This document shows, piece by piece, positions 13,698 through 64,000 of a stretch of 64,000 nucleotides of DNA. The stretch's first letter is position 1. Every line of letters starts with the position of its first letter. A program made the position numbers and the translations under genes. The DNA lies in NCBI GenBank assembly GCA_032768795.1, contig CP136491.1:1674001-1738000 (forward strand). Direction: 5' to 3'. Under the pieces are notes generated by a model, which was not told the origin of the DNA, searched no databases, and saw only the letters and a program-made list of their open reading frames with translations. The DNA comes from Tremella fuciformis (Eukaryota > Basidiomycota > Tremellomycetes > Tremellales > Tremellaceae).

Positions 13698-14678
13698 TCA
13701 GTCGACAAAGTTCCGGTCCTCCTCATCTGCGTCAACGAGAGTCTCCGTGCTCCCGTCAAAGTCTGACTGCCAAAGGATTTCTGAGCTCCTCGTGATGGCA
13801 GACGACGAGCCTCGACGGTGCTCTGTCAATAATGGCAGGGAGACATCCTCAATGGGCAATCGCCCTGAAGGATGAAAATACCAGCCGTACCCATACAGTA
13901 GGTAGCTTGAGAGGTCTTCTCTGTCGTTCGCAGCCAGCGCCACGCCCACACAGAAGTTTTCGGGATCCGAAGCCCCCTGAGGTGAGCTCCACCAATTTAA
14001 AGGATCCCAGTATGTGCCCGGGAGCGCGTCAATGGAGTCCTTAACTTCCGCTGAGAAGGTGGGATCATCCCACAATCCGAGTTTGATTTCTGCAAGCGCG
14101 TCGCTCAGTGTATGGGGTTCAAAGAGCACCGCAGCAGTCAAGCACGCAGTCTTAGTCCCCGGCGATATACTGCCCTGGCTTTGCACGCTGACCAACAGTG
14201 ACAGCTGTCGCTCCCAGGGAAATTTGAGTGGCATATTACTATCGCTGTGTGCCCGCACGTTTTTGGCTGGCACATCCGGGTGCAGGTCAAGCTTGAAATT
14301 GATATGCTCGGGGCGGTTTAACTGACGTTCGGAAGAATAAATAGATTGGCCCGTGTACGCGGTCAACCAGTCGTTGCTGAGGCAGTCTTCGAGCCCGACT
14401 AGTCTGTGCACCTGATCGTATCTTCCCAAGAGGTGAGTCTTTACATCGGAAAGCACACGATGCGTAATTCGGACGATAAGAGCTTTGCGCAATTCAGCGT
14501 GACTTTTGCCCTCCTCTTCCCGAGGATCAAATGAGGAGATGCTTGTCGTATGCTCCTCTTTCGCCATATCTGATGCCCAGACTTTCACAGCGGACTCCCA
14601 CTTCTCTCTATATTTTTCCTTGGCCTCCACGCGTTTCTTCTCAAGTTCAGCTGAATTTACGGACCTCGTAGTCGGCAT
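13698..14678 (-). CDS. Family B orphan protein B1
   Basis: 326 aa, one exon, start MPTTRSVNSAE. The N-terminus is a charged helix (REKWESAVKVWASDMAK) that matches WENALRTWRSELSK in B2. Both then have an IHR/VHR-VGL region and INFKLDLH/INFKLDF. The middle has the family motif in the form EPHTLSDALAEI. Near the C-terminus a strand pair ends in YGYGWYFHPSG, followed by an acidic tail with TETLVDADEED. No signal peptide or membrane segment. The sequence does not resemble any domain I know. The gene ends 100 bp from the retrotransposon, which therefore inserted just downstream of it. Confidence 0.7.
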   Translation of the reverse strand: MPTTRSVNSAELEKKRVEAKEKYREKWESAVKVWASDMAKEEHTTSISSFDPREEEGKSHAELRKALIVRITHRVLSDVKTHLLGRYDQVHRLVGLEDCLSNDWLTAYTGQSIYSSERQLNRPEHINFKLDLHPDVPAKNVRAHSDSNMPLKFPWERQLSLLVSVQSQGSISPGTKTACLTAAVLFEPHTLSDALAEIKLGLWDDPTFSAEVKDSIDALPGTYWDPLNWWSSPQGASDPENFCVGVALAANDREDLSSYLLYGYGWYFHPSGRLPIEDVSLPLLTEHRRGSSSAITRSSEILWQSDFDGSTETLVDADEEDRNFVD

Positions 14679-14727
14679 GACGGTGTAGATGGAGGGTCGA
14701 ATGGTCCGATGCTAAAGTTCGAGTAGG

Positions 14728-14972
14728 AGAAAAGGCAAGAAGTGGCGAGATCTTCAGTAGAATTCCCTTTCATGGCGTTTCCTCAGGCGAGAATGTGCAT
14801 AGTTGGAGAGGGCAGAAAGGATCGCAGTCCCTTCAGCCATTGTCACGTCTCGTATTCCTGCCCCTCCGGTACTGTGCGACACAATTCGCTCGATTTGTGC
14901 TGCTGACGGTCGTGTCTGACGACGTTGCCAACAGGGGTGAATGGACGCACATTTGCAGAGTGCACCCTCAGT
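14728..14972 (-). repeat. Promoter-proximal duplicated block, copy 1
   Basis: Matches 15802-16073 at many points in the same order: AAGAAGTGGCGAGATCTT against AAGACGTGGCGAAATCTT, GAGAGGGCA-AAAGGA, ACGTCTCGTATTCC in both, then ATTCGCTC and TGCAGAGTGCA against TGCAAATGCCAAGTGCA. It covers the 50-290 bp upstream of the B1 start. Confidence 0.6.
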
Positions 14973-15801
14973 CTCTGGTCGGATTGGAAATATTTGACAC
15001 GCATTCTGCATTTCCAAACCTTCCCGAAATGGGTCGAACACCTCAGACCCCAAAGTTTATCGGCGCATGCCCGATGGTCTCGTACGAATGACTCAATAGG
15101 GCCTTGGTTTGTCGGACGAAGTCGACGTATACCAGGGACCTTCAATGAGGGCAGCAGAGGATGCAGCAGTCGGGGTCAAGGTGGAGTATCCTGCTACGAA
15201 ACGCACTGTGTCTCGGCAATCCGCGCTTTGAGGTCGACGGTCTTCTGAACAGAACAAGTCTCTCGGTGTCCTGGCAGGTATGTCCTTTGAGCAAAACGCC
15301 GAGAGAGAACGCCCGGCTGAAACTTGCCAGTCACAAAAAGTATGGCTGACCAGGTCTCCCTCCCCAGGGAAAGTTGTCGGTCGTGTAACTGTAAGATGCC
15401 CAGTCTGCGGTGATGAGTCCCACATCGCCTAGATCAGTTCTTTTGCTCGCCGATTTGTTTGAACTGCCCGGTCAATGGGCGGTCGGACCTCAATGAGCGG
15501 ATTGATACATACGTTGGTCTAGGCCGCACTAGTTGCGCTTTGCCAATCCGCCTGTGCTGCTCGTCTCCACTTCCGTTCTCTTCATATGCTAGAGCGTCAG
15601 AACCCCCTTTCATAGCATGTCAGCTGTCAATTTTGCAATTCTGCGCCCAAGGTGACAAAAAGGTGTGCTGCAGATACCCAGCTTTCCGAGATCGGAGGGA
15701 TGTCCGTCCATTCCTTGAGCGTCTCGCGCTTGGCTCCACAAAGCAGAGAGAGACTATGTGTGTACGGGAGGTCGAGGGATGCGCTGCTACGATAAGAGCA
15801 G

Positions 15802-16073
15802 AAGAAAAAACAAGACGTGGCGAAATCTTTTGTGGGACACCCGTTTCGTTACTTTGCCAGAGTATGCGGCGAGAATTGGCGAAGAATTTACAGAGAGGGC
15901 AAAAAGGACCACGCTCGCCGCGGTCGTCGTGACGTCTCGTATTCCCGCCTGCGTCGTGGACATGCAAGGTCGGAAGACACCATTCGCTCTTTTTGCAATG
16001 CTCACAGTTGTGTTTGATGCCCTTGGCAATCCTGGTGTGGCACTCTGCAAATGCCAAGTGCATCCTCTTCGGA
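15802..16073 (-). repeat. Promoter-proximal duplicated block, copy 2
   Basis: Second, diverged copy of 14728-14972, about 1.07 kb away in the same orientation. No family B frame follows it on the left, so the gene it once served appears to be lost. Confidence 0.6.
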
Positions 16074-16602
16074 CCTCGGTCATTCGCAGCTACTTTACCT
16101 GTCCCAGCTGCTCCCCTGCACGTATTGGATTTCTGACCCCGCCGTATATCGCAGCATGGCTGGTGAATGCGTATGAATCACATACTTGAATGGGACTCGT
16201 CAGACAAAGTCTGTCCATACCAATCCCGTGAACAGATCCGAAAGGAGACTCAAGAAATTCAGCAGCCAGATCCCACGAGCGCACAAGTCCTGAAGGGCGA
16301 CATTCTGCTGGACAGAAAGCTCGAAAGACAGCCGTACAAGCCCGCTGAAATGCTGTTGGGGAAGGGCAAGAGCTGGGGACATAGCCCAGACCACCGCGCG
16401 AAGCCTAGAGTGGGGCGATCCGGGCGAGTCATAGAGGCAAAAAATTCATACAGTGTAAATGAAAGAAGCTTACACAGCGGCTGATGACAGTAAGCCCGCG
16501 AGCTGAGGATGAAAGCTAGAGATCAGTCGCCCAAAAAGCCCTCTGAGCAAAGCGGGATATGATATGACTTCCAGTCGTCTTCCCATCGACTCAGCCGTGA
16601 TC

Positions 16603-17529
16603 TTAGAAGGAGATCAAATCCTCCCCGTCGTGCCCCGAAGGACCAGCCCAACTTCCGCCTGCTTCGGGAAAAGCCATGAGGTCTTCTGACTGACTCGGAA
16701 GCGGCTCAAGGAGATTACTACTCCCTTCCACTTTGAACGAATCAAGGAGCTCTGCGCTCGTACCGGTATAGCACCTGTAGAACGGAAAGCTCATTGCGGA
16801 AGGGTAGTGCCATGCCCAGCAATGTGCGGTCAAAGCTATTGTATATCCAGTATCCCCAGTTGGCTCAATGACATAGTCAAAATGGGTGAGGAAACCCCGG
16901 TGGGCCAATGTCTGACCCAAACCTTGCCACTGCCACTCATCGCCCGACGTAAACTCGTCAAAGCCCCCCATGATTGAGTCGTAACCCTTCTTTCCGTTGA
17001 GATCTTTGCTGATGTCCCCCCTAACCGAGGCTAGAGCATCTTCCACTCGATTAGTGGGCAATCTTGTCCAGACTGATGTCCGATAGACTGTAGAGCCTGA
17101 TAGGTGTTTGCCTCCTGTTCTTGCTGTTATGTCGAGGTATAACCCTATCTTTGACCCTGGAGGACAAGGGGGATTGTCTTTCTTGTTCTTATATGCCTTT
17201 TTCTTCTGGTCTGTGAAGTCCAATTTGAAGTTGATCGTCCCGGGCTTTATTTGCTGAGAATCAATAAGCCCCACGCGATGAATGACTTCAGGAAGTCTGC
17301 TGTAGAGCTCCGCTTTCCATCCATCTGCAACCCACGAGCGAACCGTTCTAGCAAATCGCTGCTCGATCACATTGGAGGACGCAGGTTCCGGAATGCACGT
17401 CAAATGCTCGCGGGGCACTTTGGACAGCTCACTTCTCCATGTACGCAGGGCATTTTCCCACTGGCCCCGATAAGACTCAACCAATTGCTCAAACGGTACT
17501 TCCGGGGTTGGGTTTGCTGACATCGACAT
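16603..17529 (-). CDS. Family B orphan protein B2
   Basis: 308 aa, one exon, start MSMSANPTPEVPFEQ. It aligns with B1 along most of its length: the N-terminal tryptophan-rich helix, PEVIHRVGLIDS, TINFKLDF, and the motif RLPTNRVEDALASV. The C-terminal strand pair YVIEPTGDTGYTIAL ends in HCWAWHYPS. The tail ends GHDGEDLISF and is acidic. It is soluble and not secreted by sequence. Function unknown. It lies on the same strand as B1, 1.9 kb away. A TATATG-type box lies near 17612, and an imperfect palindrome around TTCGATCGCAAAT lies about 200 bp upstream. Confidence 0.7.
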   Translation of the reverse strand: MSMSANPTPEVPFEQLVESYRGQWENALRTWRSELSKVPREHLTCIPEPASSNVIEQRFARTVRSWVADGWKAELYSRLPEVIHRVGLIDSQQIKPGTINFKLDFTDQKKKAYKNKKDNPPCPPGSKIGLYLDITARTGGKHLSGSTVYRTSVWTRLPTNRVEDALASVRGDISKDLNGKKGYDSIMGGFDEFTSGDEWQWQGLGQTLAHRGFLTHFDYVIEPTGDTGYTIALTAHCWAWHYPSAMSFPFYRCYTGTSAELLDSFKVEGSSNLLEPLPSQSEDLMAFPEAGGSWAGPSGHDGEDLISF

Positions 17530-17725
17530 GTTGGAGCGGGAGTATGTGGAACGGTACTATGGGTGCTGCACGTAAGAGGTCGAGCGGATGCAGGGTCTGT
17601 AAAGCGCCCCATATATCTTCCAACGAGCCTCTCGCGCTGACTCTGCCAGGCGCGCAAAGGATGCGATCCCATGAATGGTTCTTGTATGCTTCAATGATTC
17701 ACCGTTGAGATATTGTGATGGTCGA

Positions 17726-17746
17726 TTGCAAACTTCGATCGCAAAT
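17726..17746 (-). promoter_or_regulatory. TTGCAA / TTCGATCGCAAAT element upstream of B2
   Basis: TTGCAA followed within a few bases by TTCGATCGCAAAT (17734-17746). The same pair occurs at 59305-59324, upstream of another family B gene (B8). The distances to the ATG are similar, about 200 and 165 bp. The element is roughly palindromic (TTGC...GCAA around CGATCG), as expected for a dimeric activator, but only two copies were found. Confidence 0.35.
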
Positions 17747-18068
17747 CATCTCAACTCCTATGTGTTTGCTGAGCTGAGCAAAGCATTTGGCTCTGCTTTT
17801 AGTCACAGTCTTGACAGTATAGTCAACGTCACGGTTGGATCTTTGATACTTGCATTCGTCAAGCATTCAAGTCGTAGCATTCCAAAATGCTGATTCGTAA
17901 ATACTGACGACCGCTTAAGGGAGTTGCTCGAATGTTAGCCCGTAACAGTTCGCAGGAACAGCAGTGTTGGGCTTTGCACGCTGGTTCGGAGGCGAAAGGC
18001 CCACATCGCCAATTTCCTGAAACGGTCCAGCATGTATGCTGAGGTGGAGAAATCAGACCGAATTGCAC

Positions 18069-18156
18069 TGTACTCGTCGCCGACATTGGTATGAATGTGC
18101 TTATAAGCGGTCATCCCCGCCAATCCACATTCATACCAATGTCGGCGACGAGTACA
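18069..18156. repeat. Perfect 31-bp inverted repeat with 26-nt loop
   Basis: The arm 18069-18099 is the exact reverse complement of 18126-18156, with no mismatch over 31 bp. The loop is 18100-18125. The arms contain CGTCGCCGACATTGG and its complement. It lies in the gap between B2 and the gene at 18362-19438. A transcript from either strand would form a long stable hairpin. No flanking duplication or transposase suggests a classical element. Confidence 0.85.
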
Positions 18157-18361
18157 CCCCTGACTGCTTTGGATGTTACGATGAACGTGAAACGGACGCG
18201 GCTGCGCCAAGGACACCGGTGAATTGAGCTCGTGCAGCTTCGGTCACCTGGACTCAAGTGCGAGCCTATGAATGCATCAGAGTGCCTTGGCGCCATATTC
18301 ACATGAAATGCATAAAGAGCCCCTGAAGAGGAAGCGAAGCAACTGAGATGGGAGCCGGCGG

Positions 18362-19438
18362 TTAAGGCTCCGGAGGGGATTGCACTCCACTTGTCCTCCC
18401 CTCCCCTCGTACCGGCTGATCAGACCCAGTCAACCCGAGTTTTGCTAGAAACGATCCCGGTGCCGTCTTTATAAGCATTTCAGTTCCCGCCACAAGTTCA
18501 GGCGGTTGGAGTGAATCTTCGCACACCTGGTAGAGGGCATGGGCCACATGAGACGAGAGAGAGTGTAGTCGCTTTTTTGCATTTTTCCCACGACGCCCTT
18601 TCAGCCATGTAACGTCGGCCTTCCTGATCCTGGCTTCGATGCCGGAGATGATCTCTTCTGTGACTGCAGGGTTGCGGTGTCGGGCGTGAATGCGATGCAG
18701 TATAATACCAGTCGTTGGTGTTGGTGGATCGGACAAGACACTCACTCGTCCACTGGATAGTTCCTTCAAATAGACAGAGCGACTGGCCACTTGCACGAGA
18801 GGTCCGATTGACAAACCCTGCTCATCTCCGTAGGAGTTTCTGCATTCCTCACACCCGGCACGGCAACTGGTGCCTCTTGCTTGGCTTCCGCGAGTCTTCC
18901 CGCTCTTACGCGGTGTTTTGATACTATGAGCTCCCTCGGTCATTGCCGTGACGCACTTCGGCATCATAAGTTGCTTTGGGTTATTTACATCCTCAGGCGG
19001 GTGCAAAGGCGCGGCAAAGCTTGTTGACGGCTCTGCGGTGGGTCTAGTCCTAGGAGCAATAACGCGCCACGAATTGGCCATGTCACCGACGTGGTCACTA
19101 AGACCTCCCTTGTCTGCTTCAGAAGTCTCCCTTACTTGAGGACTCAACAGTAGACTGGGGTACATGTAGCCAGTGTCGTCCCTGTGCTCAGCACGGAAAC
19201 ACTGCCTAGAATCCGCGAAGGTTGCTTCTGCTTCAGGTTCCAACGATGGCCCCAAATCAGCGTGAGTGTTGTTGGAGATATACCGTGCACACTCGGGACA
19301 GGTGCAGGGACGCCATTCAACATTTCCAATGCTTTCGGTAGAGGCAGGCGCGCCGAACGGATTTGGGATCCCGTCGCCGTCGGACCGTTCCATGCTCTCT
19401 GGACCGACAGTACTCCAGCCAATCGACTGCCTATCCAT
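18362..19438 (-). CDS. Diverged family A member A4
   Basis: 358 aa, one exon, start MDRQSIGWSTVG. The N-terminal two thirds are low-complexity, with two cysteine groups: CTCPECARY near residue 48 and CRAGCEEC near 197. The last 140 residues recall the family A core. SSGRVSVLSD is the counterpart of TGRTVTIDR in A3. RKADVTWLKGRRGKNAKKRL corresponds to the segment before the RL motif. LHSLSSHVAHALYQ and LQPPELVAGTEMLI correspond to FVIASAIHKSI and LTAKELSILTEGLV. So I place it as a fourth, strongly diverged member. The cysteine groups could bind zinc but are not a known finger. Function unknown. Confidence 0.55.
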   Translation of the reverse strand: MDRQSIGWSTVGPESMERSDGDGIPNPFGAPASTESIGNVEWRPCTCPECARYISNNTHADLGPSLEPEAEATFADSRQCFRAEHRDDTGYMYPSLLLSPQVRETSEADKGGLSDHVGDMANSWRVIAPRTRPTAEPSTSFAAPLHPPEDVNNPKQLMMPKCVTAMTEGAHSIKTPRKSGKTRGSQARGTSCRAGCEECRNSYGDEQGLSIGPLVQVASRSVYLKELSSGRVSVLSDPPTPTTGIILHRIHARHRNPAVTEEIISGIEARIRKADVTWLKGRRGKNAKKRLHSLSSHVAHALYQVCEDSLQPPELVAGTEMLIKTAPGSFLAKLGLTGSDQPVRGEGRTSGVQSPPEP

Positions 19439-24800: not shown

Positions 24801-28053
<3,253 letters not shown>

Positions 28054-29093: not shown

Positions 29094-29882
29094 ATGGCCA
29101 GGAACTGGAGCGGGCTTTTGCATGATGCGGTAAGAACGGGGCTTGCGGATTGCGCTCCGTCGTCCCCCTATACCTCAACACTCACGCAAGAATGTATGCA
29201 AAAGATACAACAGAAATGTGGGGACCAGATTTGCGAATCCCTCAATAGTGCAAAGTCGCCCGTCGCCAGTTGTTCTTTCGTTTCTGGCTTTACGATCTCG
29301 TTTAAGATTAAGTCTGGTGATAGCTTTCGCTTTGTAACCGAACATGGCACTCTGGTTGAGTGGAGCTCGCACCCCAAGAATATGAAAGCTGGCTTCATTG
29401 GCGTGACAGCTGAGGCTACTGGGAAGGCTTACATTTACGTCGAAGAAACTATCGAACAGCCTTGGATTGGTGCATCGGATAGCTATCTGAGGAGCCAAAC
29501 GGTGGACATAGGTCCTCTGTCAATATCTGTCCTGATATCACCGCCATCGCGCACGCTGGATATGGCGATTGCGGATGCGATAGCTGAAGCCACGATCATG
29601 TTCAATAGCACGTACCCGGATCATGCCGCTGGATTCAGCACAACACATATTGCAAGCAAAGGCGCTGAGACTCTGATGAAGGGCGATGAAGTGAAGACAG
29701 CGCGAAAAGACGAGAAGGTGGCACACCCAGAGAGACATCGCTTCTGGTATGATGTTTCCTGCACTTTTGCGCCGCTTTCAGAACGCCTCTTTCTGATGAG
29801 AGGGTCTCTCGGAGGGTATCACTGGCAGGGGGGTCTAGAGACAAAGCTTGAAGGGAGGGATTTTCAATACGTTCTCCCGTAA
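29094..29882 (+). CDS. Family B orphan protein B3
   Basis: 262 aa, one exon, start MARNWSGLLHDAV. Family landmarks in order: an N-terminal helix with a tryptophan, TISFKIKSGDSF-type strands, then ISPPSRTLDMAIADAIAEA (the P-x-hydrophobic-acidic-A motif in variant form). After a charged spacer, FWYDVSCTFAPL pairs with LFLMRGSLGGYHWQGG. The two strands and the closing aromatic cluster are the family's most constant feature. No signal peptide, membrane segment or known catalytic pattern. It is the first of four genes on the same strand within 5.8 kb, so local tandem duplication is likely. Confidence 0.7.
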   Translation: MARNWSGLLHDAVRTGLADCAPSSPYTSTLTQECMQKIQQKCGDQICESLNSAKSPVASCSFVSGFTISFKIKSGDSFRFVTEHGTLVEWSSHPKNMKAGFIGVTAEATGKAYIYVEETIEQPWIGASDSYLRSQTVDIGPLSISVLISPPSRTLDMAIADAIAEATIMFNSTYPDHAAGFSTTHIASKGAETLMKGDEVKTARKDEKVAHPERHRFWYDVSCTFAPLSERLFLMRGSLGGYHWQGGLETKLEGRDFQYVLP

Positions 29883-30817: not shown

Positions 30818-31672
30818 ATGGAACCGGAACGCCCCGACTGGGGCGCGGCAATCGCACCAGCTTTGGAGCTCATCAGGCGCAGTCAATCATTGGCGCCGTA
30901 TTGGGAGGACTGCATTCGGCAGGCGTTCCCTGACAATAGGATCTTCGGCAGGTACCATAGCGAAGCACTGCAGTCGCTCTTGCTTGAAAAGACTAAAGGC
31001 AATCTTCGATCCCAATTGCCGGAATACATCGCGAGATCCGACTTGATCACTTACGATCAGTCAAACATCACAGGGACAGCGCTGTGGGGCCGTAATACCT
31101 CTTCGAATGGGCCGTACTACGAGAATACTGCCGACGATCCACCGTCGGACATTGAGGGAATCATCAGTACTCCAAGACGTCGTGTCATTCGCATGGATTT
31201 CACAGTGAGCGGAATTGTCACCATCCGGAGGGTCAATCTGGTTTGGGCTCGAGGCCTCGGCCGCTGGCGCGAGGATTACACGACTTCTCCGCACGCATTA
31301 CGCAGCACGATACTGGACATGGCAATCGACCCGCCCTCTCAATCATACGAGGACGCGATCGAGAGGGGCATCAGCGCAGCTATAGAGACTCTTCAAGGCA
31401 CACAACGAGCGGTCGAACTGCCACCTGACCCATCCATAATCGTCGAGCTCGGAAGCGCGATGATGCAGCCAATGCAGTCTGAAGTCGACACAAACTGGGG
31501 GCTGCCGCGCCTTGAGGAGCGTACCTCTGTAGTGTGGTACGAAGCAGATTGTACTCTTGACCCACAAGACTCCAGAGAGTTCCACTTGACTGCCAGACTG
31601 AGAGGATGGTGGTGGGAGAAGACTGAGACGGAGCTCCCGCAGATAGAAATTACGGCTGTCATCACGGTCTGA
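30818..31672 (+). CDS. Family B orphan protein B4
   Basis: 284 aa, one exon, from MEPERPDWGAAIAP; an open extension upstream of this ATG is unlikely to be used. N-terminal helix with APYWEDCIRQAF, then RVIRMDFTVSG and the family motif AIDPPSQSYEDAIERG in its clearest form. The C-terminal strand pair is VVWYEADCTLDP with FHLTARLRGWWWEK. It ends soon after, without an acidic tail. Compared with B3 and B5 it shares the motif order but little overall identity, so the family evolves fast. Soluble by sequence. Function unknown. Confidence 0.72.
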   Translation: MEPERPDWGAAIAPALELIRRSQSLAPYWEDCIRQAFPDNRIFGRYHSEALQSLLLEKTKGNLRSQLPEYIARSDLITYDQSNITGTALWGRNTSSNGPYYENTADDPPSDIEGIISTPRRRVIRMDFTVSGIVTIRRVNLVWARGLGRWREDYTTSPHALRSTILDMAIDPPSQSYEDAIERGISAAIETLQGTQRAVELPPDPSIIVELGSAMMQPMQSEVDTNWGLPRLEERTSVVWYEADCTLDPQDSREFHLTARLRGWWWEKTETELPQIEITAVITV

Positions 31673-32467: not shown

Positions 32468-33319
32468 ATGGAAGCTGACTGGCGCTCTGCTATCGAGCGC
32501 TCATTCCCTGACGACACTCCCCTATACACTTTCAGCACGGCATTAAACACGGCATTGATGCGCGAGACTCGCGAAGCTCTCATGACCAAATATCGCACGT
32601 GGCTCAAGGAGTCGGGCTTCTCCTTCGACCCAACGAAGGAGATGCCTTTTCTTCGGCTACGCAATGCTACGCACATGGGCCCCGCTTATGACAGAAGGTC
32701 GGGGGGATTCACGTTCAACGTGCTGGTACAGGAGTTTGTCACCGACACGATGCCTCGAATCGTCGACGAGGACCCGATTGTAGGCACTGACGGCCTGCTC
32801 ACTTATACGAAGGAGAAAAGCGAGAAGCTTCCCGACGTTTCTTTCAGCGTTGTGGTTCCTCGACCGTGTCAGCATTTCGAGGACGCTGTCTGTGCAGGCC
32901 TCAAGGAAGCGATAAACTCACTTGTGCTAGCGGGCAAGGCACCCGGAAGACATCCAGGCGGAGCAAGCCTCCAGGACTGTGCGCAAACTGTATTGTTCAA
33001 TAAGTGGAAAGAGCTTCATCAGAAATTTGAACTCGAATTCTACCGCAGGGCCTCCTCAGGATACTGGCTCGAGGCGACGTGCACATTCGAGTGGGAGGCA
33101 ACGGGCAATTACACATTGAGTACGAAGTGGGAGGGTCGGGAATGGTACGACGACGAGGAGAGGGACGAGCGGGAGTTCTCTGTTCAAGTAACCAATGATA
33201 CTGTGCGTGGGCAATGGCCTGATCCTGCCAACCAGTATGTTTTCGGTCCGGTCCTTACAACTTCTTCGAAGAGTACTAGGTCCCAGGTGAAGCGTCCGGG
33301 CTCCCCGGTTTTCCTGTAG
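32468..33319 (+). CDS. Family B orphan protein B5
   Basis: 283 aa, one exon, from MEADWRSAIERSF. N-terminal helices with MTKYRTWLKESGF, a strand region (FTFNVLVQEF), then SFSVVVPRPCQHFEDAVCAG, the family motif. The C-terminal pair is YWLEATCTFEWEA with YTLSTKWEGREWYDDEE, followed by a charged region and a basic tail (RSQVKRPG). Third gene of the same-strand run. The conserved cysteine after the first C-terminal strand start (ATCTF) is also in B3 (SCTF) and B4 (DCTL). No known domain. Confidence 0.72.
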   Translation: MEADWRSAIERSFPDDTPLYTFSTALNTALMRETREALMTKYRTWLKESGFSFDPTKEMPFLRLRNATHMGPAYDRRSGGFTFNVLVQEFVTDTMPRIVDEDPIVGTDGLLTYTKEKSEKLPDVSFSVVVPRPCQHFEDAVCAGLKEAINSLVLAGKAPGRHPGGASLQDCAQTVLFNKWKELHQKFELEFYRRASSGYWLEATCTFEWEATGNYTLSTKWEGREWYDDEERDEREFSVQVTNDTVRGQWPDPANQYVFGPVLTTSSKSTRSQVKRPGSPVFL

Positions 33320-33934
33320 ACGACAAGCTCACACAGTTCAACAGCTTAGTACTTCTCGCAGCATGTTCATGCATTCATAATTATCTTGCGGTAGAGGTCC
33401 AGATGTTGTTTTCGAAAGTGGCACTTTCGAATTGTTAGGCCACTTTTGCCACTTTCTGGAGGCCACCTGTGATGAATGATTGTGCGCGACCAACCGGGCC
33501 GCGACTACCACGGGGACTCCCGTCGGGTCACTTGGACACGATGCTTCGACAAAGACCATACGGGCACTACTACAAGCCTTGCAGGGTCCTCGAAATCACC
33601 ACTTGACTGATTCGAGCGTTGACTCATGAGGTGATGACGCGAGCGCACGGAACAATGGCCCTGACTTAAGCATTCGCATCACAGGGTTTCATTGAGCGAC
33701 GGCTGTCGGCCAAGGCAAATGGCGTACGATACACAACTGCAAGACGCATCATCTGAGGCCCTGTAAGCAATGTATGCTTTGAATCTTCCACGAAGCCTCC
33801 CGACTCGTTGTTCCTTTGACTTCCTTTGACGCAGAAAAGTGCAAAAGAGCCATGAACTTCACCTTCTTACACGTTCGCTTCGCATGATTTACATGCCCTG
33901 ATATAGTCTCCGCCTTCGGTATTGAACAACACAG
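33320..33934. other. Spacer B5-B6
   Basis: About 600 bp without a gene. Three CACTTT repeats occur within 33417-33463, including a near-palindrome CGAAAGTGGCACTTTCG. I see nothing else. Confidence 0.35.
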
Positions 33935-34845
33935 GTGGAACGGCCCTTGCAGCTTGATCAAGACCAGACAGTAGAAGGATACATCGTGAGCGACATCCAC
34001 AATGGCCAGAGAAACCGTCTCTGGTCTCATATATCGCACTGGAAGGCCAGCGCTGCAAGTTACGCAAGGCACATGCGAGGGGCTTGGAGAGACCGCCAAG
34101 AGAGTTGTCAGCCCGATGCTGTGCCGTGCTCAATCTTTGAGGACACACTCGGAGCTTAGCTCGTCGAGAGCATCGACGCAGATCTCAGTGATCGCTATCA
34201 GGAGATGATGACAAAGACGGACTTCAACAGCGTCGTTACTCCAGGACCAGCCATGCCCAATTCCAGCTCCGGCTAGCTAGCCCAATCACGTACGCGTTCA
34301 ATTCTGTCATGGACCTAGAAAATGCCAGTGGAGGCTCAAGCGGCCCCACAATCAGCTTCAAGACGTCGGTGTTCGCTTTGAAAGGCAACAGCACCGCCGC
34401 ATGCACTTTGCACAGTGTCATTCCATTGCCTAGCCGAGATATCTCGAGCTGCCTGAAAGACTCTTCCGTCGTTGCCTACCAAGCTTTCAGCGAGTACTGG
34501 AGGGACAAACCTGATGTACGCGACGACTTCCTCGCAAAGTTTAAGCAGACCAACCTTCAATCTCTGCTACAGCCTTGGACGCAGGCCAACACGAGACTCG
34601 CTCGCAGTCCAATAAATGTATATTTCGACGACTGTGAGGCCGAGGCGAGTGTGACGGAATCCGGCTCATACGACGTGACCCTCACTTTCTCGGGACACTA
34701 CTGGGAGCAGGGACGTATCTCCACCATGTCGAGGACGACATTTACCGCCGCGGTAGAAGTGCCAGGCGAAAATACCTCATGGGTTATTGGTGAATGGACC
34801 AATCAGCCGAGCCCACCCAAGAAGGTCTGGGCATGGCTGGAGTGA
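33935..34845 (+). pseudogene. Family B copy B6, apparently broken
   Basis: The C-terminal part (34309-34845) is clear family B: VIPLPSRDISSCLKD for the motif, then VYFDDCEAEASV pairing with YDVTLTFSGHYWEQG. Upstream, the frame from 33935 runs into an in-frame TAG at 34157-34159 and continues as LVESIDADLSDRYQEMM. It then must change frame near 34240 to reach FQLRLASPITYAF, which leads into the C-terminal part. No normal-length intron with good splice sites explains both breaks. A 39-nt GTGCCG...CTTAG intron could remove the TAG, and a 35-nt one could fix the frame, but both donors are weak. I call it a pseudogene, with unusual splicing as the alternative. Confidence 0.55.
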
Positions 34846-50771: not shown

Positions 50772-51560
50772 CTATGCTGATGCCTCTCCCTGCTCCTCCT
50801 TCAGGCTCAGCTCCAAACCTTGCAGCGTCCGCACCAAGCCGCCGCCGCCTCCCTGCCCCAGTACACCGATGAGCTCCCTGCCGCGCATCTCCAGCAACCC
50901 AACAACCTGTGCCCGAAGAACATCCAGCTCGTCCAACTTGCCCACCCGCTCGATGCCGTGGACAGGCATGACCGTCCCCTCCAGCACGCCGGCGATCAAA
51001 GACAGCTGGGGCTGCTTGACGACCTGGCCTTTCTGCTCTTCTCTCTGACTCGTCTTGATTGCGCGCTGGATGCCGGCCAGCAGTCGTGAGAGGTACGCAG
51101 GCGACAGCGATGGGCAAGTGAGGAGCGCGACGGGTCCAGAGAGGTGTTGCAGATGCGGGGAGTTGGGCGACTGATTCCGCGACAGTGCTGAGAGAATACC
51201 TGTTCGTGCGATCGTCAAGGTCGCTGGTTCTGCCGGGTCTGCTGACGGCAATTGCGGGGTCGACTTGATTGCTTTTCGTATTTTCGACAGATCGCGGACG
51301 GTGAGGTTCGCATGCGAGAAGAGGAGTACGAGGTCGGATCGGTGCAGAAGGTGCGAGTAGTAGGAGTAGAGGAATGTCTTTCGGGGTGTATATGTACGCG
51401 CTGTACTCGATGGTCCGGGTACGGCTTTCGAGGACGATGCGAATGGAGACGGTGTGGAGGAGAAATGCCGTGCAAAAGCGACTGCCGGTACGGAAGCCGC
51501 AGGTGTTGCTGATCGAGCAGCAGCTTGAGCTCCGCAGGTGATTGCGCGTCTGCTGTACAT
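50772..51560 (-). CDS. Mitochondrial ribosomal protein uL10m
   Basis: 262 aa, one exon, from MYSRRAITCG at 51560; an open upstream extension to 51629 would put the targeting region too far inside. The N-terminus is Arg/Ser/Ala-rich, with RHFSSTPSPFAS as a typical mitochondrial targeting and cleavage region. The L10 fold follows: KTFLYSYYSHLLHRSDLVLLF, LTVRDLSKIRKAI, a central GPVALLTC strand, and the C-terminal helix region ending SLKEEQGEASA. It builds the stalk base of the mitochondrial large subunit. It is divergent from RPN9 (290 bp) and convergent with the Kish gene. Confidence 0.82.
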   Translation of the reverse strand: MYSRRAITCGAQAAARSATPAASVPAVAFARHFSSTPSPFASSSKAVPGPSSTARTYTPRKTFLYSYYSHLLHRSDLVLLFSHANLTVRDLSKIRKAIKSTPQLPSADPAEPATLTIARTGILSALSRNQSPNSPHLQHLSGPVALLTCPSLSPAYLSRLLAGIQRAIKTSQREEQKGQVVKQPQLSLIAGVLEGTVMPVHGIERVGKLDELDVLRAQVVGLLEMRGRELIGVLGQGGGGGLVRTLQGLELSLKEEQGEASA

Positions 51561-55546: not shown

Positions 55547-56455
55547 TTACGCCTCTTCTTCCTCCTCCTCGCCGCCACTTCCCGATGTCACCTCAGTGTC
55601 AGCGGCCTCGATGGTATGGTTGAATACACCCCATTCTCCGTTCGACGTTTTCTTGACGGAGAAGCAGATCTCCGCGCTTTGCGGCAGCACTGAAGTGCGG
55701 TGGCTGGCCTTGTCAAGACGATAAACGTCACACACGCAGTAAATGTTCAAGTCGTTGTCGTTGTAATCGACATCGATCACTGGATCGAACGACCTTAACT
55801 CGTGGGGGATGTCGGCGATTTCAGCATTGAGCAATCCTTCTACGCAACTCTGATCTTCCAACAGCTGTTTGAGAGCTCGCCCGGTAAGGTCCTCCGCCAC
55901 TTCTTCCGGGCAAGCCTGCAGTGCCTTCCCGCAAACAGATCGCAGGTTCATCTCGGTGATCTCTTCGTAGCTGAGCATCCTTGCCGGGATGGCAGGGTGC
56001 ATGACCACTTCTTCATAATCGGAATCCAGATGCTCACCTTTGGCTTTGTCCACGATTGAAGCTTTGATCGTGGTCTTGAAGTTCAGCATTGTCTTTTGCG
56101 TAAAACTGTCTGTTTCCATAAAGTTCGCCTGAGACCTAACGTTGACGAGCCATTTGACTTCATGGGTCTTATCGTCGAACTCCCTTTCAGACAAGCCGGA
56201 ATCTTTGACCACCGTATCGAATCGGTTGGAGAGATCTTTGCGCAGGTCCTTGAGAGCCGCCCTATTGTAGACGGTATGATCAATACTGTAGGCCGCAGCC
56301 TCTAGCGCGGTTTCGAATGCAGACTGTGACTGCGCGCCAAAGCCGGGATGCTTACACACCGTGTCCGACGTGGCCGCAGCTTCAGCACCGCAGACATCCT
56401 CAGTGGCGGGCTGCGTGGCAGTCTTGACGTCAAATGTCTTGGTGGGTGCACTCAT
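55547..56455 (-). CDS. Family B orphan protein B7
   Basis: 302 aa, one exon, from MSAPTKTFDVK at 56455; the open extension to 56557 is upstream of the likely transcript start. Closest relative is B8. Both have AFETALEAA/AFEIALERA, a helical LRKDLSNRFDTVV region, LSEREFDDKTHEVKW, then FTQKTMLNFKTTIKAS against VTQKMMLRCETSIWAS. The family motif appears as IPARMLSYEEITEMN. The C-terminal part has DYNDNDLNIYCVCDVYR and a Glu-rich tail. A TATATAA box lies 64 bp upstream (56519-56526). Start context ACCCA-CAATGAGTG is nearly identical to B8. Function unknown. Confidence 0.72.
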   Translation of the reverse strand: MSAPTKTFDVKTATQPATEDVCGAEAAATSDTVCKHPGFGAQSQSAFETALEAAAYSIDHTVYNRAALKDLRKDLSNRFDTVVKDSGLSEREFDDKTHEVKWLVNVRSQANFMETDSFTQKTMLNFKTTIKASIVDKAKGEHLDSDYEEVVMHPAIPARMLSYEEITEMNLRSVCGKALQACPEEVAEDLTGRALKQLLEDQSCVEGLLNAEIADIPHELRSFDPVIDVDYNDNDLNIYCVCDVYRLDKASHRTSVLPQSAEICFSVKKTSNGEWGVFNHTIEAADTEVTSGSGGEEEEEEA

Positions 56456-58034: not shown

Positions 58035-59147
58035 TTATTCAAGGTCTAATCCAACAAGAGTGATAGTCTCTTCGTCACCAAAATTGGTGTCATCTCCAAC
58101 AAGCGTGAGGGCGTCGGGGTCAACATCAAGGTGATTCGCCTCTTCAGCAGTCTCTTCTTCCACAGCAGCCGCTCTTCTGATGGGGTTCGTACTGATTATG
58201 GGCCCCAGTTCACCCGTGTACTTCTTGATATCATCGTAACACCAATAGAAGCCTCCATCTGGCTTCGGCTTGGCATCCAGAAAGATTTTTACACTTCTTA
58301 AGAGCGCAGCGAAGCCGTTGTGCAGATGGTAGCCTCTGTATGTGCTCTCGATTCGAGTAACGTCTTCAAGCGGATAGTAAGTCACCCCAGTTGTTAGAAC
58401 GTGCGATCTTGACTCTTGAGGTATTTCCGCATTGGGGGACCAAAGAAATGTCTGAACCTCTTCACTCTTACTCAGCAGCTTGTCGACAACCATCTCGATG
58501 AGTGGTTCTAACTGATCAGGGGGTGGAGGATAGGCTGTGTAGCCAAATCCCTGTGGCACCTGCGTCATGGTGGCGTCCTCGTAGCTCTGCGACTTTGCGG
58601 GAACGAGGGCCTCAAACTTCGTACTTAGGTTGGGAAGCAGGCTTCGAGAAGAACCTTTGTTGCAGACAGAGGCCCAGATGGACGTCTCACAGCGCAGCAT
58701 CATCTTTTGTGTTACACTGTCGGTGTACAAATAAGGCTCCCGGGCTTTGAATTTGATATACCATCCGATATCTTGGGTCACCTCATCGAAGCTTTGCTCA
58801 GATAATCTCGTTCGTCTGACGAAGACCTCGAAATTCTTAGAGACATATTCGAATAGGTCGCTTGCCACCGCTCTGGCTATGCAGCCGGGTACCGGAGGTC
58901 TTCGATCAAGCGGACTCGACGGCAAAGATTGGCCGTCTGACGGACTCCATACTGGAGATCTGAGCATTGGAGGTATATCGATATACGCTCTCTCGAGAGC
59001 TATCTCGAAGGCAGCCTTGGACCTTTCCCCAAAGACTGTGCCTTCTGTCTCTCGGCTCGATGAGGGAGCAGGTCCAGAGCCGTTGGCATCCTGCTCGAAT
59101 GTCACGGTGAGCTCGTGGGGGTGTACCACCTCGGCAGCTTGACTCAT
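58035..59147 (-). CDS. Family B orphan protein B8
   Basis: 370 aa, one exon, start MSQAAEVVHPHEL. Sister of B7 through AFEIALERAYIDI, LSEQSFDEVTQDIGWYI, VTQKMMLRCETSIWAS and the motif VPAKSQSYEDATMT. It is longer because of an inserted Pro-rich loop after the first helix (RSPVWSPSDGQSLPSS) and a longer acidic tail that carries two TLVG repeats (ALTLVGDD and TITLVGLD). The tail resembles TETLVDADEED in B1, 44 kb away. The C-terminal strand region is GVTYYPLEDVTRIES with YRGYHLHNG. No signal peptide. A TTGCAA/TTCGATCGCAAAT element is about 165 bp upstream, and a TTATAAG box is near 59245. Confidence 0.72.
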   Translation of the reverse strand: MSQAAEVVHPHELTVTFEQDANGSGPAPSSSRETEGTVFGERSKAAFEIALERAYIDIPPMLRSPVWSPSDGQSLPSSPLDRRPPVPGCIARAVASDLFEYVSKNFEVFVRRTRLSEQSFDEVTQDIGWYIKFKAREPYLYTDSVTQKMMLRCETSIWASVCNKGSSRSLLPNLSTKFEALVPAKSQSYEDATMTQVPQGFGYTAYPPPPDQLEPLIEMVVDKLLSKSEEVQTFLWSPNAEIPQESRSHVLTTGVTYYPLEDVTRIESTYRGYHLHNGFAALLRSVKIFLDAKPKPDGGFYWCYDDIKKYTGELGPIISTNPIRRAAAVEEETAEEANHLDVDPDALTLVGDDTNFGDEETITLVGLDLE

Positions 59148-59304: not shown

Positions 59305-59324
59305 TTGCAATTTCGATCGCAAAT
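59305..59324 (-). promoter_or_regulatory. TTGCAA / TTCGATCGCAAAT element upstream of B8
   Basis: TTGCAA, then TTCGATCGCAAAT at 59312-59324, as at 17726-17746 upstream of B2. It lies in the same orientation relative to the gene and at a similar distance from the start codon. Confidence 0.35.
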
Positions 59325-59424
59325 TCGGCTCGTTTTGACATTTGACTAGAGTCCTGTATCAAATGCTGTGATTTCAGAAACATCCCTTCTACCTTTGAGA
59401 ACAAAGGGCTGCACAGTCCTGCTC

Positions 59425-60240
59425 TCATGGATTGCCACAAATTGACCTCGTTTGGGAATATGATTCAGCCTTTACCGTCGACCTGCTGATCCTCAAGATT
59501 GAGTCACCAGATGGCGTAATGCGGGTGGGGTCTCCAGACGGGCAATCTCTTCCTCCTGCAAGCTCACGGACCGCTGGCTCCGCACGGTTCTCGGATGATC
59601 GGATGATGAGCCTCAGCGTAGGTTCTCCCCCTTGCAGCGCTGACTCACAGTCGGTGGCTAGACTATCTTCAGTTTTCAAGACCCAGACTCTCAGCGGAGG
59701 CAGCCCTCGATATGCAAAAAGAAAGCTTCGCGTTACTTGTCAACCCCGCTGATTGGTGTGAGAGGTTAATCCAGTTTCCTGAGGACAAGACGAAGCCCGT
59801 GAATTGGCTTTTCACCTCTTTGAACGCCCTGTTCATCACAGCCGCACAGAAGCTTTCGGACTCCTCATCATCGGTGCCGAAATCTCCTGTCAAGGTCGCG
59901 CGGTCCCAGGCTTCTTTCACGCGTGGATCCAAGTTCCGTACTTTGCGACGGTTTCTAAGTGGCGCTTCATGTACCACCAGACAGCATTGGTGTCACTCAC
60001 TGAGAGGGCGCAGACACCGGAGCGGCTGATGACCTCGTTGAAGGAGTTGAGCACTTGTGAGCGGACATTTCTGATTACCCAGCGATCTATCTCACGCCCG
60101 AGATCAAACAGTTCAGTACGATCCGGCAAGCATGTCTGGACATCGTGCGTCCACTCGGAGCGGAAAGAGGGCGCGAGAGCGGAAGCCGTAGCAGCATTCC
60201 GAAGCGGGACACGCGGATCCCACTCACCATTAGCAGACAT
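59425..60240 (-). pseudogene. Family B-like locus B9 in three frames
   Basis: A start MSANGEWDPRVPL at 60240 leads into helical sequence (LFDLGREIDRWVI, VLNSFNEVISRSG, NAVWWYMKRHLETV) like the N-terminal half of B7 and B8. The frame stops near 59918. A second frame continues with NLDPRVKEAWDRATL, SFCAAVMNRAFKEVKSQF and SSGNWINLSHQ, and a third with PTLRLIIRSSENRAE and ITPSGDSILRISRS. I could not find introns of normal length with good sites that join them. It is therefore either broken or has unusual splicing. The order of the pieces matches a family B protein. Confidence 0.4.
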
Positions 60241-61138
60241 TGTGTGAGGTGCAACACATGAGGGGATGAAAGATCCCGGGACTGAGCTGCCATATCTCCG
60301 GTTGAAACCGAAGGCACCGCATCAGACAGCAAATGATCGGAGTTGTCACCCTGCGCAATTTGTGGCATCACGGCATCTGGACGCACGGAGCACCATGACC
60401 CGCCCACCCACTGTTGCAGCTACTTGGGTGTTTGAGAAGAGGCCGGAGTGATACAGCAGCATACACTTCCCTTTGTGCATCTGACCCATTCTAGGGGCTG
60501 GAGAGCATTTCGTTTTCCAGGTGCAATGCTCGTCGGTCTCACTTGACGATCCGCGGAAGAGGTGGGAGGGACTATCGCGCAGACCGTAAGACCCCGCATC
60601 TCGCCTACCTCTCGACCTCCATGTAGGCCGTCTCTCCTCTTGGGTATCAAGGTGAGCTGGCGCAAAGGCCGAGACAGCGACAACAGTAAGAGACGACGCA
60701 GAATAATCCAGACACAAAGGATTGCCCACACGCGTAGGGCAGACTCGTAGATGCATCTTCCCTCATGTTCGGACCTCACGCTCTCCGATGCTACTGACAC
60801 ACCGCGTCCGGATGTACACGCTCAGAGCTGACGAGACATCAAGGCCTGCTACATACACAGCTTGATCTGCACAGCTGCGTGTGGCCTGCTTGCTAATACT
60901 TGAAACGTGTCTGAACTGTATTTTCCTCACACCTACCCCTATTGGCAGCAAGCGTCGAGGAATAGCTGTTATCAAATGAGACGGCACAGGATGACTGGCA
61001 TCCTTTGTCAGCGAAAAGCATCGCCTCCTAGCCTGAAAGCTATAAGTAAGGGAAGTGGCGACTGCGAATGTCTCTCAATCATACCATCAAGTCTGACCGA
61101 AACCTTGATCTCGGACATACCCACCTTTCGCGTGCGAC
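60241..61138. other. Spacer B9 - Ser-rich gene
   Basis: About 900 bp with no gene I can support. It is the upstream region of both the minus-strand B9 locus and the plus-strand gene after it. Confidence 0.4.
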
Positions 61139-62573
61139 ATGCCTATCGGAGATGATTGGTCCACCTGGATGGAGGATGGAGTGGCTGTCTCCGTCCCCGC
61201 AACAGCTCCTCGAAGTGAATTTGAGGCAGCTGCGAATCGCGCTTCGTCCAAGGCCGCTTTGTCTTCGCAGGCCACGTCCAAGCCGTCGCTGGAAGCCGAC
61301 TCCGGTGACACAGGAGCGCAAGGCGCAAATGCAGACGCTGCCATGGTACGTGAGGTTTTTACTCGCGCGGCAGCAAAGACTGCGATGCCGTTCTCTGGCC
61401 CATCTGCTAAGGCGCCTTCCCGTGACAAAAAGCTTGGAAGTGTAGCTCAGCCACGCAGAGCTCCAAACACGTCTTCCTCGAGTGGTAGCGGATGGCCCTC
61501 CCAAAAATCTCTTTCTCAGTCGAGGAGACCTTCGACCGGCGCATCGTCCGTCTCTGCCCGGCGGTCATCTCCCCCCCTTTCTGACAGATACCGATTCATC
61601 AGGACGCCGAGCTCTTCCGACGATTCTATTGAACAGCCTAGAAGAGAGCCTCTTCGAAGAAAGAAGAGGGGTGCCGAAAAAGTCTCCTGTCAACTCCAGC
61701 AACGCTCGTGATAAGGACCCGTGGGATAATACCGGGTGGGATTCGGACGTCATGTTCGGCTCGGCCCAAAGGGATCCTTCGAGTACCACTGGCAATCGCA
61801 CTCGTACCAGACAGTCCGGCATGTTATCTGTATCCTCCCCAACAGACGGCGAGGATCTCGCCAGGCCGCAAGCAGCCCGTACGAAAACAAATCGAACAAC
61901 GAGGCGTCCGTCCAATGGGGTCGGCCTTCCCAAGGACGACCTCCGAGCCAAAAGCAACACAAACACCAGGACCAAGACCGGATCTGTTCCTGGCGGTTCG
62001 CCGCATCAACTCAGCGACAGAGACGGCTACTCTCGTACTTCCACACGTAACGACACAGCCACCCTCGATGACCAGATTATACAGTCATATCCGAATGGTG
62101 TACGCCAGCCGACGGTCGGGCAAAAGTTTTCGCCAACAAGATCGGCGACGTCTTCATATGTCCCGTCGAGCTCGCTGAAGCGCAAGCTGCCTTTTGCGCA
62201 GAGCTCTCCAGACAGCAAGCGCATCGCTAAACCTGACTCGCTGGTAGCAACTGGCAGTGGCCTAGGTCGGGGCGTGGATGATGCTGACTCCGACTCGAGC
62301 GCCGCAAGTGGTCGGGCCTCTTTCGTGGAGACTCCGACATTTCATTCTGGGATCGCAAAGGCCCCCTTGAAGAGCGTGAGCTCCAGATTGGACAGAGGTG
62401 ATACCAGGACGTCCGCACCACGAGACGACGCCACTCACATGTGGTTGGAGAGGCGCCTGCTGCAGCAAGCGCTCGGTAAGGCAACCCGTATGTATCAGAA
62501 CAACGCCACTGCCTATGAAAATGCCGCACGGACTGGCGCTTGTGAATTCTGCAGCATACCGACCCGGGATTGA
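61139..62573 (+). CDS. Ser/Arg-rich disordered protein, frame change inside
   Basis: Starts MPIGDDWSTWMEDGV. The first frame (to about 61640) is Ala/Ser-rich and then Ser/Arg-rich (SGSGWPSQKSLSQSRRPS). The coding quality then moves to the next frame, which runs to 62573 with DKDPWDNTGWDSDVMFG, TRTRQSGMLSVSSPTDGEDL and a final helical part (HMWLERRLLQQALGKATR) ending CEFCSIPTRD. I found no GT-AG intron of the right length modulo three between the two, so either an unusual intron or a 1-nt indel separates them. No known domain. The tail overlaps the start of the family B gene B10 in another frame. Confidence 0.45.
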
Positions 62574-63180
62574 ATGGTGGGTCCAAGACCGCGTTCAGGA
62601 AATCATGGCCTCAGACGTGTTTTCCAGAGTATGGGGGGATGATTGTGCAACACTCCGCGTTTCTGTCAATCCGCCTAGCTTCACGATCGACGAAGACCAC
62701 CTCCATTCGGCCTTGGATGTCACCTTCTCGACCAGCATACCCGGAGTGTTAGGGCAAAAACACGTGGGCGCGCTGAAGTTGACAGACTGCGAAGTTCTGC
62801 GCACGGTTGACATGACTCTCATCAAATCCCAGACAGCGGCGGCACTCGGCAAGCAGCTGGTACGCGAGTGGGGAAAGTACCATGAAGACGGGGCCTCGGC
62901 TTCCACAGCGACACAGCATATCAAGGACGACTTCATGAGGGTCATAGAGTCCACAGATCACAACTTTAGCTTGTCTAAATGGGATGAACGGCTGCCAAGC
63001 GCCCTCGCCAAACATTATGAGGTCGATGTAAACGTCACCTCAAAGGCGCGTACTACCGGAGTCACTGCAGAATTCACATACCACCGATACTCCATGAACC
63101 GGGTGAACGGCACCTGCGTGTGGTCGAAAGACCCAGATTTCAAATTCCAACTCGAGGGCGAGTCCACGAGGCACAAGTGA
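62515..63180 (+). CDS. Family B orphan protein B10
   Basis: 221 aa, one exon, from the ATG at 62515 (MKMPHGLALVNSA); the frame is open further upstream but only with a non-ATG start. N-terminal helix with WWVQDRVQEIMASDVF, strands FTIDEDHLHSALDVTF and ALKLTDCEVLRTVDMTLIK, a helix TAAALGKQLVREWGKY, FMRVIESTDHNFSLSKW, then the C-terminal pair HYEVDVNVTSKA with VTAEFTYHRYSMN. The motif order is that of family B, though the P-x-SYEDA motif is not obvious. It overlaps the end of the preceding Ser-rich frame by 59 nt, which suggests one of the two is mis-started or they are parts of one spliced gene. Confidence 0.55.
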   Translation: MKMPHGLALVNSAAYRPGIEWWVQDRVQEIMASDVFSRVWGDDCATLRVSVNPPSFTIDEDHLHSALDVTFSTSIPGVLGQKHVGALKLTDCEVLRTVDMTLIKSQTAAALGKQLVREWGKYHEDGASASTATQHIKDDFMRVIESTDHNFSLSKWDERLPSALAKHYEVDVNVTSKARTTGVTAEFTYHRYSMNRVNGTCVWSKDPDFKFQLEGESTRHK

Positions 63181-63476
63181 GAGCTGAGGTGCTACAGTGG
63201 CGTTCCCTCGGAACATGTTGCTCAGACCAAGCTCACGGTGACCAGGGGATGTATAATATTTGATCGTATGCATGTCACAATGTGATACGAATGCAACGGG
63301 AAACTGAAAAGTTGCTATAAGACGTGGCGTCTTCCGCACGGATCACGCACGTTGATGCACGCCGCAATGCCCGCGTTTCATCTAGCTCCTCGGCATTGCC
63401 TTGAGAGGCTGGCCCTATCCAGTTCCCAGCTTCTAACACACCTAGGCAAGCGCTGTAACCAGCCCCACAAGCCGAG
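63181..63476. other. Convergent spacer B10 - B11
   Basis: About 300 bp between two family B genes that end facing each other. I see no gene. Confidence 0.4.
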
Positions 63477-64000
63477 TCAAGTAGTACTCGGCAACACTAC
63501 AGTGACAGAATGGGTCTTCAGAGGGTGGAAAATATCATTCCCCCATATCCATCCAGAATATTCAGCTTCCACTTCGACGGATCGGCCTACGTGTGCCTTG
63601 GCCGTGATGACCGTCGAAATCCACATGCGGTCTTCCTCCAAGCTCACTGGCACTTCAGTAGCCCATTGCTCAAAAGCGTTGAGCTTGCTGTTGAGCAGCA
63701 TAGCAGCGACATCCGATTCTCGTTCGCTGGAAAGGAGGGGAAGGTCGAGCTCCAGTGATGTGGCATCTTCCCAGCTCTGTACGGGCGCCAGGACGTGAAT
63801 GGGGAGCCGGACGGGCTTGAGGGCGGTCCCGCAGACCGTTGCGATACACCCGAAGCGGCCTCTACGCGGCTGGGGAAACCAATCGTACGATTCGGGTTGG
63901 CAGCTTACTACCCACGTCAGATTGCCCGAATCACCGTTGTAGACTGCGGCAAGCCCAGAGCAGGTGATGACGACTTCGAGCGAATTCAGAACTTGGGATC
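63477..64000 (-). CDS. Family B orphan protein B11, C-terminal part (cut by window edge)
   Basis: An open frame without a start runs from the right edge of the window to a stop at 63477, 174 codons. It has the family layout: strands (NSLEVVITCSGLAAVY, NLTWVVSCQPESYDWF), the motif VLAPVQSWEDATSLEL, a helix (VAAMLLNSKLNAFEQWATEV), then MWISTVITAKAHV pairing with VEVEAEYSGWIWGND. The N-terminal part must lie beyond 64,000. It is the second clearest example of the SWEDA/SYEDA motif in the window. Confidence 0.75.
   Translation of the reverse strand, partial: SQVLNSLEVVITCSGLAAVYNGDSGNLTWVVSCQPESYDWFPQPRRGRFGCIATVCGTALKPVRLPIHVLAPVQSWEDATSLELDLPLLSSERESDVAAMLLNSKLNAFEQWATEVPVSLEEDRMWISTVITAKAHVGRSVEVEAEYSGWIWGNDIFHPLKTHSVTVVLPSTT

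What the first reader, a model, noticed from the sequence alone, without database searches (positions are those of the whole stretch)
13698..64000. Family B: an expanded, fast-evolving orphan protein family with a definable signature
At least ten loci share the order: N-terminal tryptophan-bearing helix; beta strands; a proline then [YFWLV]-[ED]-[DE]-A motif (SYEDAIE in B4, SYEDATM in B8, HFEDAVC in B5, SWEDATS in B11, SYEEITE in B7, RVEDALA in B2, LSDALAE in B1, LDMAIAD in B3); and a C-terminal strand pair closing with clustered aromatics (GGYHW, GWWWE, GREWY, GHYWE, GWIWG, HCWAWHY). Overall identity is otherwise very low. Several have acidic tails with TLV repeats. I recognise no known domain. 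Such fast-diversifying, locally clustered families are typical of genes in conflict or recognition roles (allorecognition, effector-like, element silencing).
Basis: partly seen in the sequence, partly recalled or inferred. Interest (0 to 1): 0.75.

Follow-up and report, generated by a model that had tools for sequence, protein, structure and literature searches.

The report
Fast-diverging orphan gene cluster in Tremella
A fungus, very probably the edible silver ear Tremella fuciformis, carries a local cluster of about ten related genes of unknown function that match no family in the databases searched, appear to share one predicted shape, and have multiplied, diverged and partly decayed side by side.

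Summary
Family B is a real homologous family: eight uninterrupted frames (B1-B5, B7, B8, B11) plus two interrupted copies (B6, B9) from window 13698 to the right edge, which B11 crosses. A frame that I tested as B10 (62515-63180) is not supported. Leave-one-out profiles recover eight of the ten frames tested above background. AlphaFold2 models of two members (B4, B8) give the same order: helices, three to four strands, two to three helices, three to four strands. The "SYEDA" motif caps the helix after the first sheet; the "G-aromatic-W" motif closes a C-terminal strand. Conserved columns look structural, not catalytic. No Pfam match above cut-off, no relative in a 5.8-billion-protein word-based search, and no copies elsewhere in the genome were found at the sensitivity used. 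Each member's closest relative is its chromosomal neighbour: tandem duplication with fast divergence and decay. No signal peptide or membrane segment is evident by hydropathy. A recognition-type binding role is my best inference, untested; no fold could be assigned. Ordinary as a kind of thing (fast-evolving orphan tandem family), new as a member.

The parts
13698..14678 (-). B1, 326 aa, uninterrupted; signature LSDALA, GYGW; acidic tail with ETLVDADEED
   Evidence: 0 of 300 shuffles; nearest relative B2
16603..17529 (-). B2, 308 aa, uninterrupted; RVEDALA, HCWAWHY; acidic tail
   Evidence: B1 E 1.4e-4, B4 0.02; by profile alone not above noise
29094..29882 (+). B3, 262 aa, uninterrupted; LDMAIAD, GGYHW
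30818..31672 (+). B4, 284 aa, uninterrupted; SYEDAIE, GWWWE; modelled
   Evidence: (pLDDT 65.7, pTM 0.60)
32468..33319 (+). B5, 283 aa, uninterrupted; HFEDAVC, GREWY
33926..34845 (+). B6, interrupted copy: the open C-terminal frame 34309-34845 (GHYWE) plus N-terminal pieces at 33926-34156 and 34160-34273, colinear with the profile; decay or splicing not resolved
   Evidence: C-terminal frame; three pieces hit profile 23-50, 56-77, 152-254 in order; each weak alone, E 7.4, 0.61, 1.2
55547..56455 (-). B7, 302 aa, uninterrupted; SYEEITE; acidic EEEEEEA tail
   Evidence: B8 E 1e-19
58035..59147 (-). B8, 370 aa, uninterrupted; SYEDATM; acidic tail with LTLV and ITLV; modelled
   Evidence: (ten-residue pLDDT means 71-92 from 91 to 310)
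59920..60321 (-). B9, frame that keeps the N-terminal third only; relative of B11; decay or splicing not resolved
   Evidence: E 7.6e-20 to B11; E 6e-11 to a profile that holds B11
63480..64000 (-). B11, C-terminal part inside the window; SWEDATS, GWIWG; the whole frame is C2:1737480-1738226 (233 aa from its ATG) and crosses the window end

Best explanation
Family B is a lineage-restricted family of soluble intracellular proteins with one two-part alpha+beta fold (helices, 3-4 strands, 2-3 helices, 3-4 strands). Shown: homology, local tandem arrangement, two interrupted copies, no database relatives at the sensitivity used. Supported by models of two members: the common fold, with the SYEDA motif as cap of the helix after the first sheet and the G-aromatic-W motif at the end of a C-terminal strand. 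Inferred: it grows by local duplication, diverges fast and is lost often (birth and death); it acts as a binding scaffold rather than an enzyme, with surfaces that change under selection to recognise changing partners inside the cell, such as products of non-self nuclei, mycoviruses or mobile elements.
For: Homology and profile recovery. Same element order in the models of B4 and B8, with the motif at the same strand-helix junction: B4 helix from 177, SYEDA at 176-180; B8 helix from 189, SYEDA at 188-192. Columns kept in at least 6 of 8 members are the start M, W, L, E, D, A, W, T, G, W and a C-terminal P; no H, C, K, R or S, so no obvious active site. Nearest relative is the chromosomal neighbour for 9 of 9 members counted (B6 and B10 left out; B10 lies between B9 and B11), in runs of one strand: B1-B2 minus, B3-B5 plus, B7-B8-B9-B11 minus; under random gene order this has a chance of about 0.001 (384/9!, arithmetic). 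B6 and B9 interrupted. No hydrophobic segment (highest 19-residue Kyte-Doolittle mean 1.31). No relatives in the protein collection (in one search only the 7997 candidates sharing most words were scored, 6665), although a neighbouring ribosomal protein finds 58 proteins, with Tremella mesenterica, Cryptococcus, Kwoniella and other tremellomycetes (grouping recalled) among the named ones.
Against: No functional evidence of any kind. Fast divergence may be relaxed constraint. The models are of middling confidence (mean pLDDT 65.7 and 63.4; five-model means down to 38.2 for B4) and share four alignment rows, so they are not fully independent; the other members were not modelled. The word-based protein search would miss relatives as distant as the members are from each other. 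Between subgroups several profile comparisons do not exceed shuffles.
Confidence: 0.35

Rival explanations
1. The family diverges fast because it is nearly dispensable: tandem duplicates under weak constraint, with no recognition or conflict role.
For: Interrupted copies B6 and B9; accessory gene content of the species is high (27 T. fuciformis haplotypes: 3549 core of 14,567 families, PMC13066641, passages).
Against: Eight frames of 233-370 aa remain open and the structural signature is kept at about 20% identity, which suggests purifying selection at least on the fold.
Confidence: 0.3
2. The proteins are effectors exported by an unconventional route for the interaction with the partner fungus Annulohypoxylon.
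For: Orphan, clustered and fast-evolving, as effectors often are (recalled); T. fuciformis is found in association with A. stygium (PMC13288022, abstract start in the search listing).
Against: No clear N-terminal hydrophobic signal by hydropathy (no trained predictor available, and this would not exclude an unconventional route).
Confidence: 0.1
3. The family derives from a mobile element or virus gene that was domesticated.
For: A Ty3-type element, young by its end repeats, lies beside B1 (6642-13597, 198-base repeats 100% alike); eight members are single open frames.
Against: No Pfam element domain in the ten frames tested; the viral structure library gives only poor matches for B8 (best E 7e-4 with TM 0.15 by query); the element is separate from the B genes.
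Confidence: 0.08
4. The resemblance is compositional chance among long open frames.
For: Pairwise identities in the alignments are 9-31% and the motif was chosen after seeing the sequences.
Against: Leave-one-out recovery, pairwise E down to 6e-20, 0 of 391 background frames with the strict motif pair, adjacency of nearest relatives.
Confidence: 0.02

Closest known systems
NTF2-like / VirB8-like half-barrels (structure only)
   Different: Two such parts in one chain, poor superposition, no sequence match, Z in the range that may be a common arrangement only
Hot-dog thioesterases (structure only)
   Different: None among the 50 rows shown for B8; no candidate catalytic residue among the conserved columns
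Gasdermin-like RCD-1 of Neurospora, a fungal allorecognition protein (role recalled)
   Different: Rank and Z are in the noise; only 67 residues covered
Very divergent orphan families such as the aphid bicycle genes (PMC9168663, seen only in the search listing)
   Same: Rapidly evolving family whose relatives are hard to find by sequence
   Different: Bicycle proteins are described there as putative gall effectors; here no signal peptide and no known biological setting

Membership tests
One homologous family B | Profile without a member recovers it above background | tested here: met
   8 of 10 frames tested (B1, B3-B8, B11); B2 and B10 not; B9 not in that test
One homologous family B | Common predicted fold | tested here: met
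   B4 and B8 only, same order of elements; others not modelled; models not fully independent
One homologous family B | Lineage-restricted | tested here: inconclusive
   No relatives at E<=1 (A1) or E<=10 (B8); a control finds tremellomycetes, but the search needs shared 5-residue words
NTF2-like fold | Cone-shaped helix-wrapped curved sheet | tested here: inconclusive
Gasdermin-like (RCD-1) | Gasdermin N-terminal fold | tested here: inconclusive
HET-domain or NLR-type incompatibility proteins | HET, NACHT or NB-ARC domain | tested here: not met
   No such Pfam match at E<=1 in ten frames: B1-B8 and B10, C-terminal part of B11
Classically secreted effectors | N-terminal signal peptide | tested here: inconclusive
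   No clear hydrophobic N-terminal stretch by Kyte-Doolittle; highest 8-residue mean in the first 30 residues of an uninterrupted frame is 1.89, in B4; no trained predictor available
Conflict or recognition gene | Positive selection or strain polymorphism | not testable with these tools
   One haplotype only

The most novel reading that the evidence does not exclude
Family B is an undescribed two-part alpha+beta fold that serves as an intracellular non-self recognition system in Tremella, with copy set and sequence differing between the nuclei of a dikaryon.
Probability: 0.08. Interest if true: 0.75.

Novelty: new member of a known kind. Interest (0 to 1): 0.4.

Why it matters
Orphan tandem families make up part of what is unexplained in fungal accessory gene content. 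This one has a signature, a predicted fold and a defined cluster in what is very probably a species with 27 complete haplotypes in print (PMC13066641, abstract passage), so selection and presence/absence can be tested directly.

Tried and rejected
Tried: Pfam on B1-B8 and B10 and the B11 part: nothing above cut-off; below it at E<=1 only His_Phos_1 0.14 (B1), LRR_ComC 0.37 (B4) and fn3_6 0.17 (B10), taken as chance. PDB by sequence with two profiles: A3 has 2 matches at E<=10, best 0.89; A4 none. Foldseek PDB for both models: none at E<=0.001; viral library for B8. Absence of a family from those lists shows nothing, so the fold is unassigned, not called new. A sigma-70 promoter scan says nothing for a fungus.

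Rejected: B10 as a member. Against that rejection: its comparison with the B3-B5 profile beats 20 of 20 shuffles, over 13 columns only; with B6 2 of 20 shuffles reach it, with the other B groups 12 to 18 of 20. The D cluster (C2:1762170-1767668, three paralogs) as part of the family: hints only (hhalign over 51 columns P 0.032; 0 of 20 shuffles higher against B1-B2 and against B3-B5, but 3 of 20 against B7-B8, 15 of 20 B11/B9, 17 of 20 B6, 1 of 20 B10; whole profile: 4, 13 and 41 of 379 background frames at least as high; not among the 23 best of an N-terminal profile). The frame C2:1738822-1739700 next to B11 tops the background in three of the four profiles rechecked (B1, B2 and B10 left out in turn) but has no support from single members or from a profile without B10. 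Weak genome hits C2:3096173 and C6:1619705 look unrelated by eye (no family search made). Internal duplication of the two parts: 0 of 40 shuffles higher but over 13 columns, not claimed. Subgroup profile tests (20 shuffles each): B3-B5 with B11/B9, B7-B8 with B11/B9 and B1-B2 with B7-B8 beat all shuffles; B1-B2 with B11/B9 is reached by 1 of 20, B3-B5 with B6 by 2, B3-B5 with B7-B8 by 3, B1-B2 with B3-B5 by 5; B6 with B1-B2, B7-B8 and B11/B9 by 16, 19 and 10. The family is held together by a chain of links, not all-to-all. Organism check by 5.8S rRNA gave only a sub-threshold match on C1, although the paper puts rDNA of a derived strain on Chr02; this neither confirms nor refutes. Paper searches for this or a like family listed none. 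Of papers I saw: outline with abstract, sections 5 and 8 and passages of PMC10696834, passages of PMC13066641 and PMC13288022, and search listings otherwise.

Full report
Where it is. The window is C2:1674001-1738000 of a 28,140,229-base genome in 11 contigs; C2 has 3,633,012 bases. A mitochondrial-type ribosomal protein of the window (50772-51560) finds 58 proteins; those whose names give an organism are tremellomycetes such as Tremella mesenterica, Vanrija and Kwoniella (grouping recalled), none near 100% identical (best 58%). Tremella fuciformis Tr01 haplotype A is published with 11 chromosomes, 28.15 Mb, Chr02 of 3.63 Mb (PMC10696834, passages). The species is therefore inferred, strongly, from sizes; a check by 5.8S rRNA was inconclusive.

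Is the family real. Eight uninterrupted frames (B1-B5, B7, B8, and B11, which crosses the right edge) of 233-370 aa, plus B6 and B9 in pieces. Pairwise and leave-one-out tests are in the observation check. Three pieces of B6 hit the profile in the right order within 1 kb, each weak alone. B9 keeps only the N-terminal third in its frame and is close to B11. B10 fails. Left of the window, C2:1672426-1673201 on the minus strand shows a W-bearing start, an LPTN sequence like that of B2, and in another frame an SGWIW end; its scores are weak (E 0.28 and 0.25; 15 and 1.9), so it is a candidate only. No other supported member was found in 294 kb around the window, nor by six single-member searches of the whole genome (B1, B2, B4, B5, B8 and the B11 part). 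Those searches also missed known members, such as B1 from B2 and B9 from the B11 part, so dispersed copies are not excluded.

Architecture. The B4 model (7 rows; mean pLDDT 65.7, pTM 0.60) gives helices 8-24, 26-36, 49-74, strands 84-93, 124-140, 153-160, 164-170, helices 177-194, 205-227, strands 239-249, 254-265, 272-283. The B8 model (6 rows; 63.4, 0.55; under 50 at 1-36, 59-76, 78-87 and 314-370) gives helices 37-53, 79-82, 88-104, 106-112, a short strand 55-57, strands 125-142, 149-163, 174-183, helices 189-202, 210-226, 228-235, strands 247-258, 263-276, 279-294, 300-311. GWWWE of B4 (263-267) lies at the end of strand 254-265. So the signature marks structure. Columns kept in at least 6 of 8 members are the start M, W29, L76, E178, D179, A180, W240, T246, G263, W266 (B4 numbering) and a C-terminal P absent from B4 (at W29 the B8 letter probably comes from its insert, as B8 and B7 have F there in the N-terminal alignment).

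Evolution. Closest relatives are neighbours on the chromosome and on the same strand, with interrupted copies among them: local duplication, divergence, decay. The cluster is interrupted by conserved genes (MCM helicase, squalene/phytoene synthase, DnaJ, Ytp1-like, M13 peptidase, PPP4R2). The same region holds other tandem clusters of orphan-looking genes, so family B may be one case of a more general pattern in this genome.

Function. The best guess is a soluble binding protein in a fast-changing recognition process; relaxed constraint is nearly as likely. Neither is tested. Verdict: a genuine new orphan family, with a useful structural signature, of a known kind.

Noticed in passing
window 6642-13597: Ty3-type LTR retrotransposon with a chromodomain: one 1750-aa frame, 198-base end repeats 100% identical, so probably young; a related copy lies at C2:1862452-1867093.
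   Followed up: partly
window 1-6028 and C2:1667821-1680028: Separate tandem cluster on the minus strand (seven frames linked by phmmer) with long N-terminal parts and a C-terminal stretch holding an N-x-x-TG sequence in several members; no Pfam match at E<=0.01 in the three tested.
   Followed up: partly
C2:1620008-1631321: Another tandem cluster on the plus strand (seven frames linked), with a Cys-bearing N-terminal motif in several members and a similar N-x-x-TG stretch; profiles do not link it to the cluster at 1667821-1680028.
   Followed up: partly
C2:1762170-1767668: Tandem trio, the second and third 34% and 38% identical to the first, with a W-bearing first helix and an AGL stretch, possibly distantly related to family B; evidence inconclusive.
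   Followed up: partly
C2:1672426-1673201: Candidate further B member in two frames, lying inside the neighbouring orphan cluster.
   Followed up: partly
C2:1738822-1739700: 293-aa frame next to B11 that heads the true background in three of four leave-one-out profiles rechecked; unsupported by single members or by a profile without B10.
   Followed up: partly
window 18362-19438: Orphan 358-aa frame with a CTCPEC motif, no Pfam match at E<=0.01.
   Followed up: no
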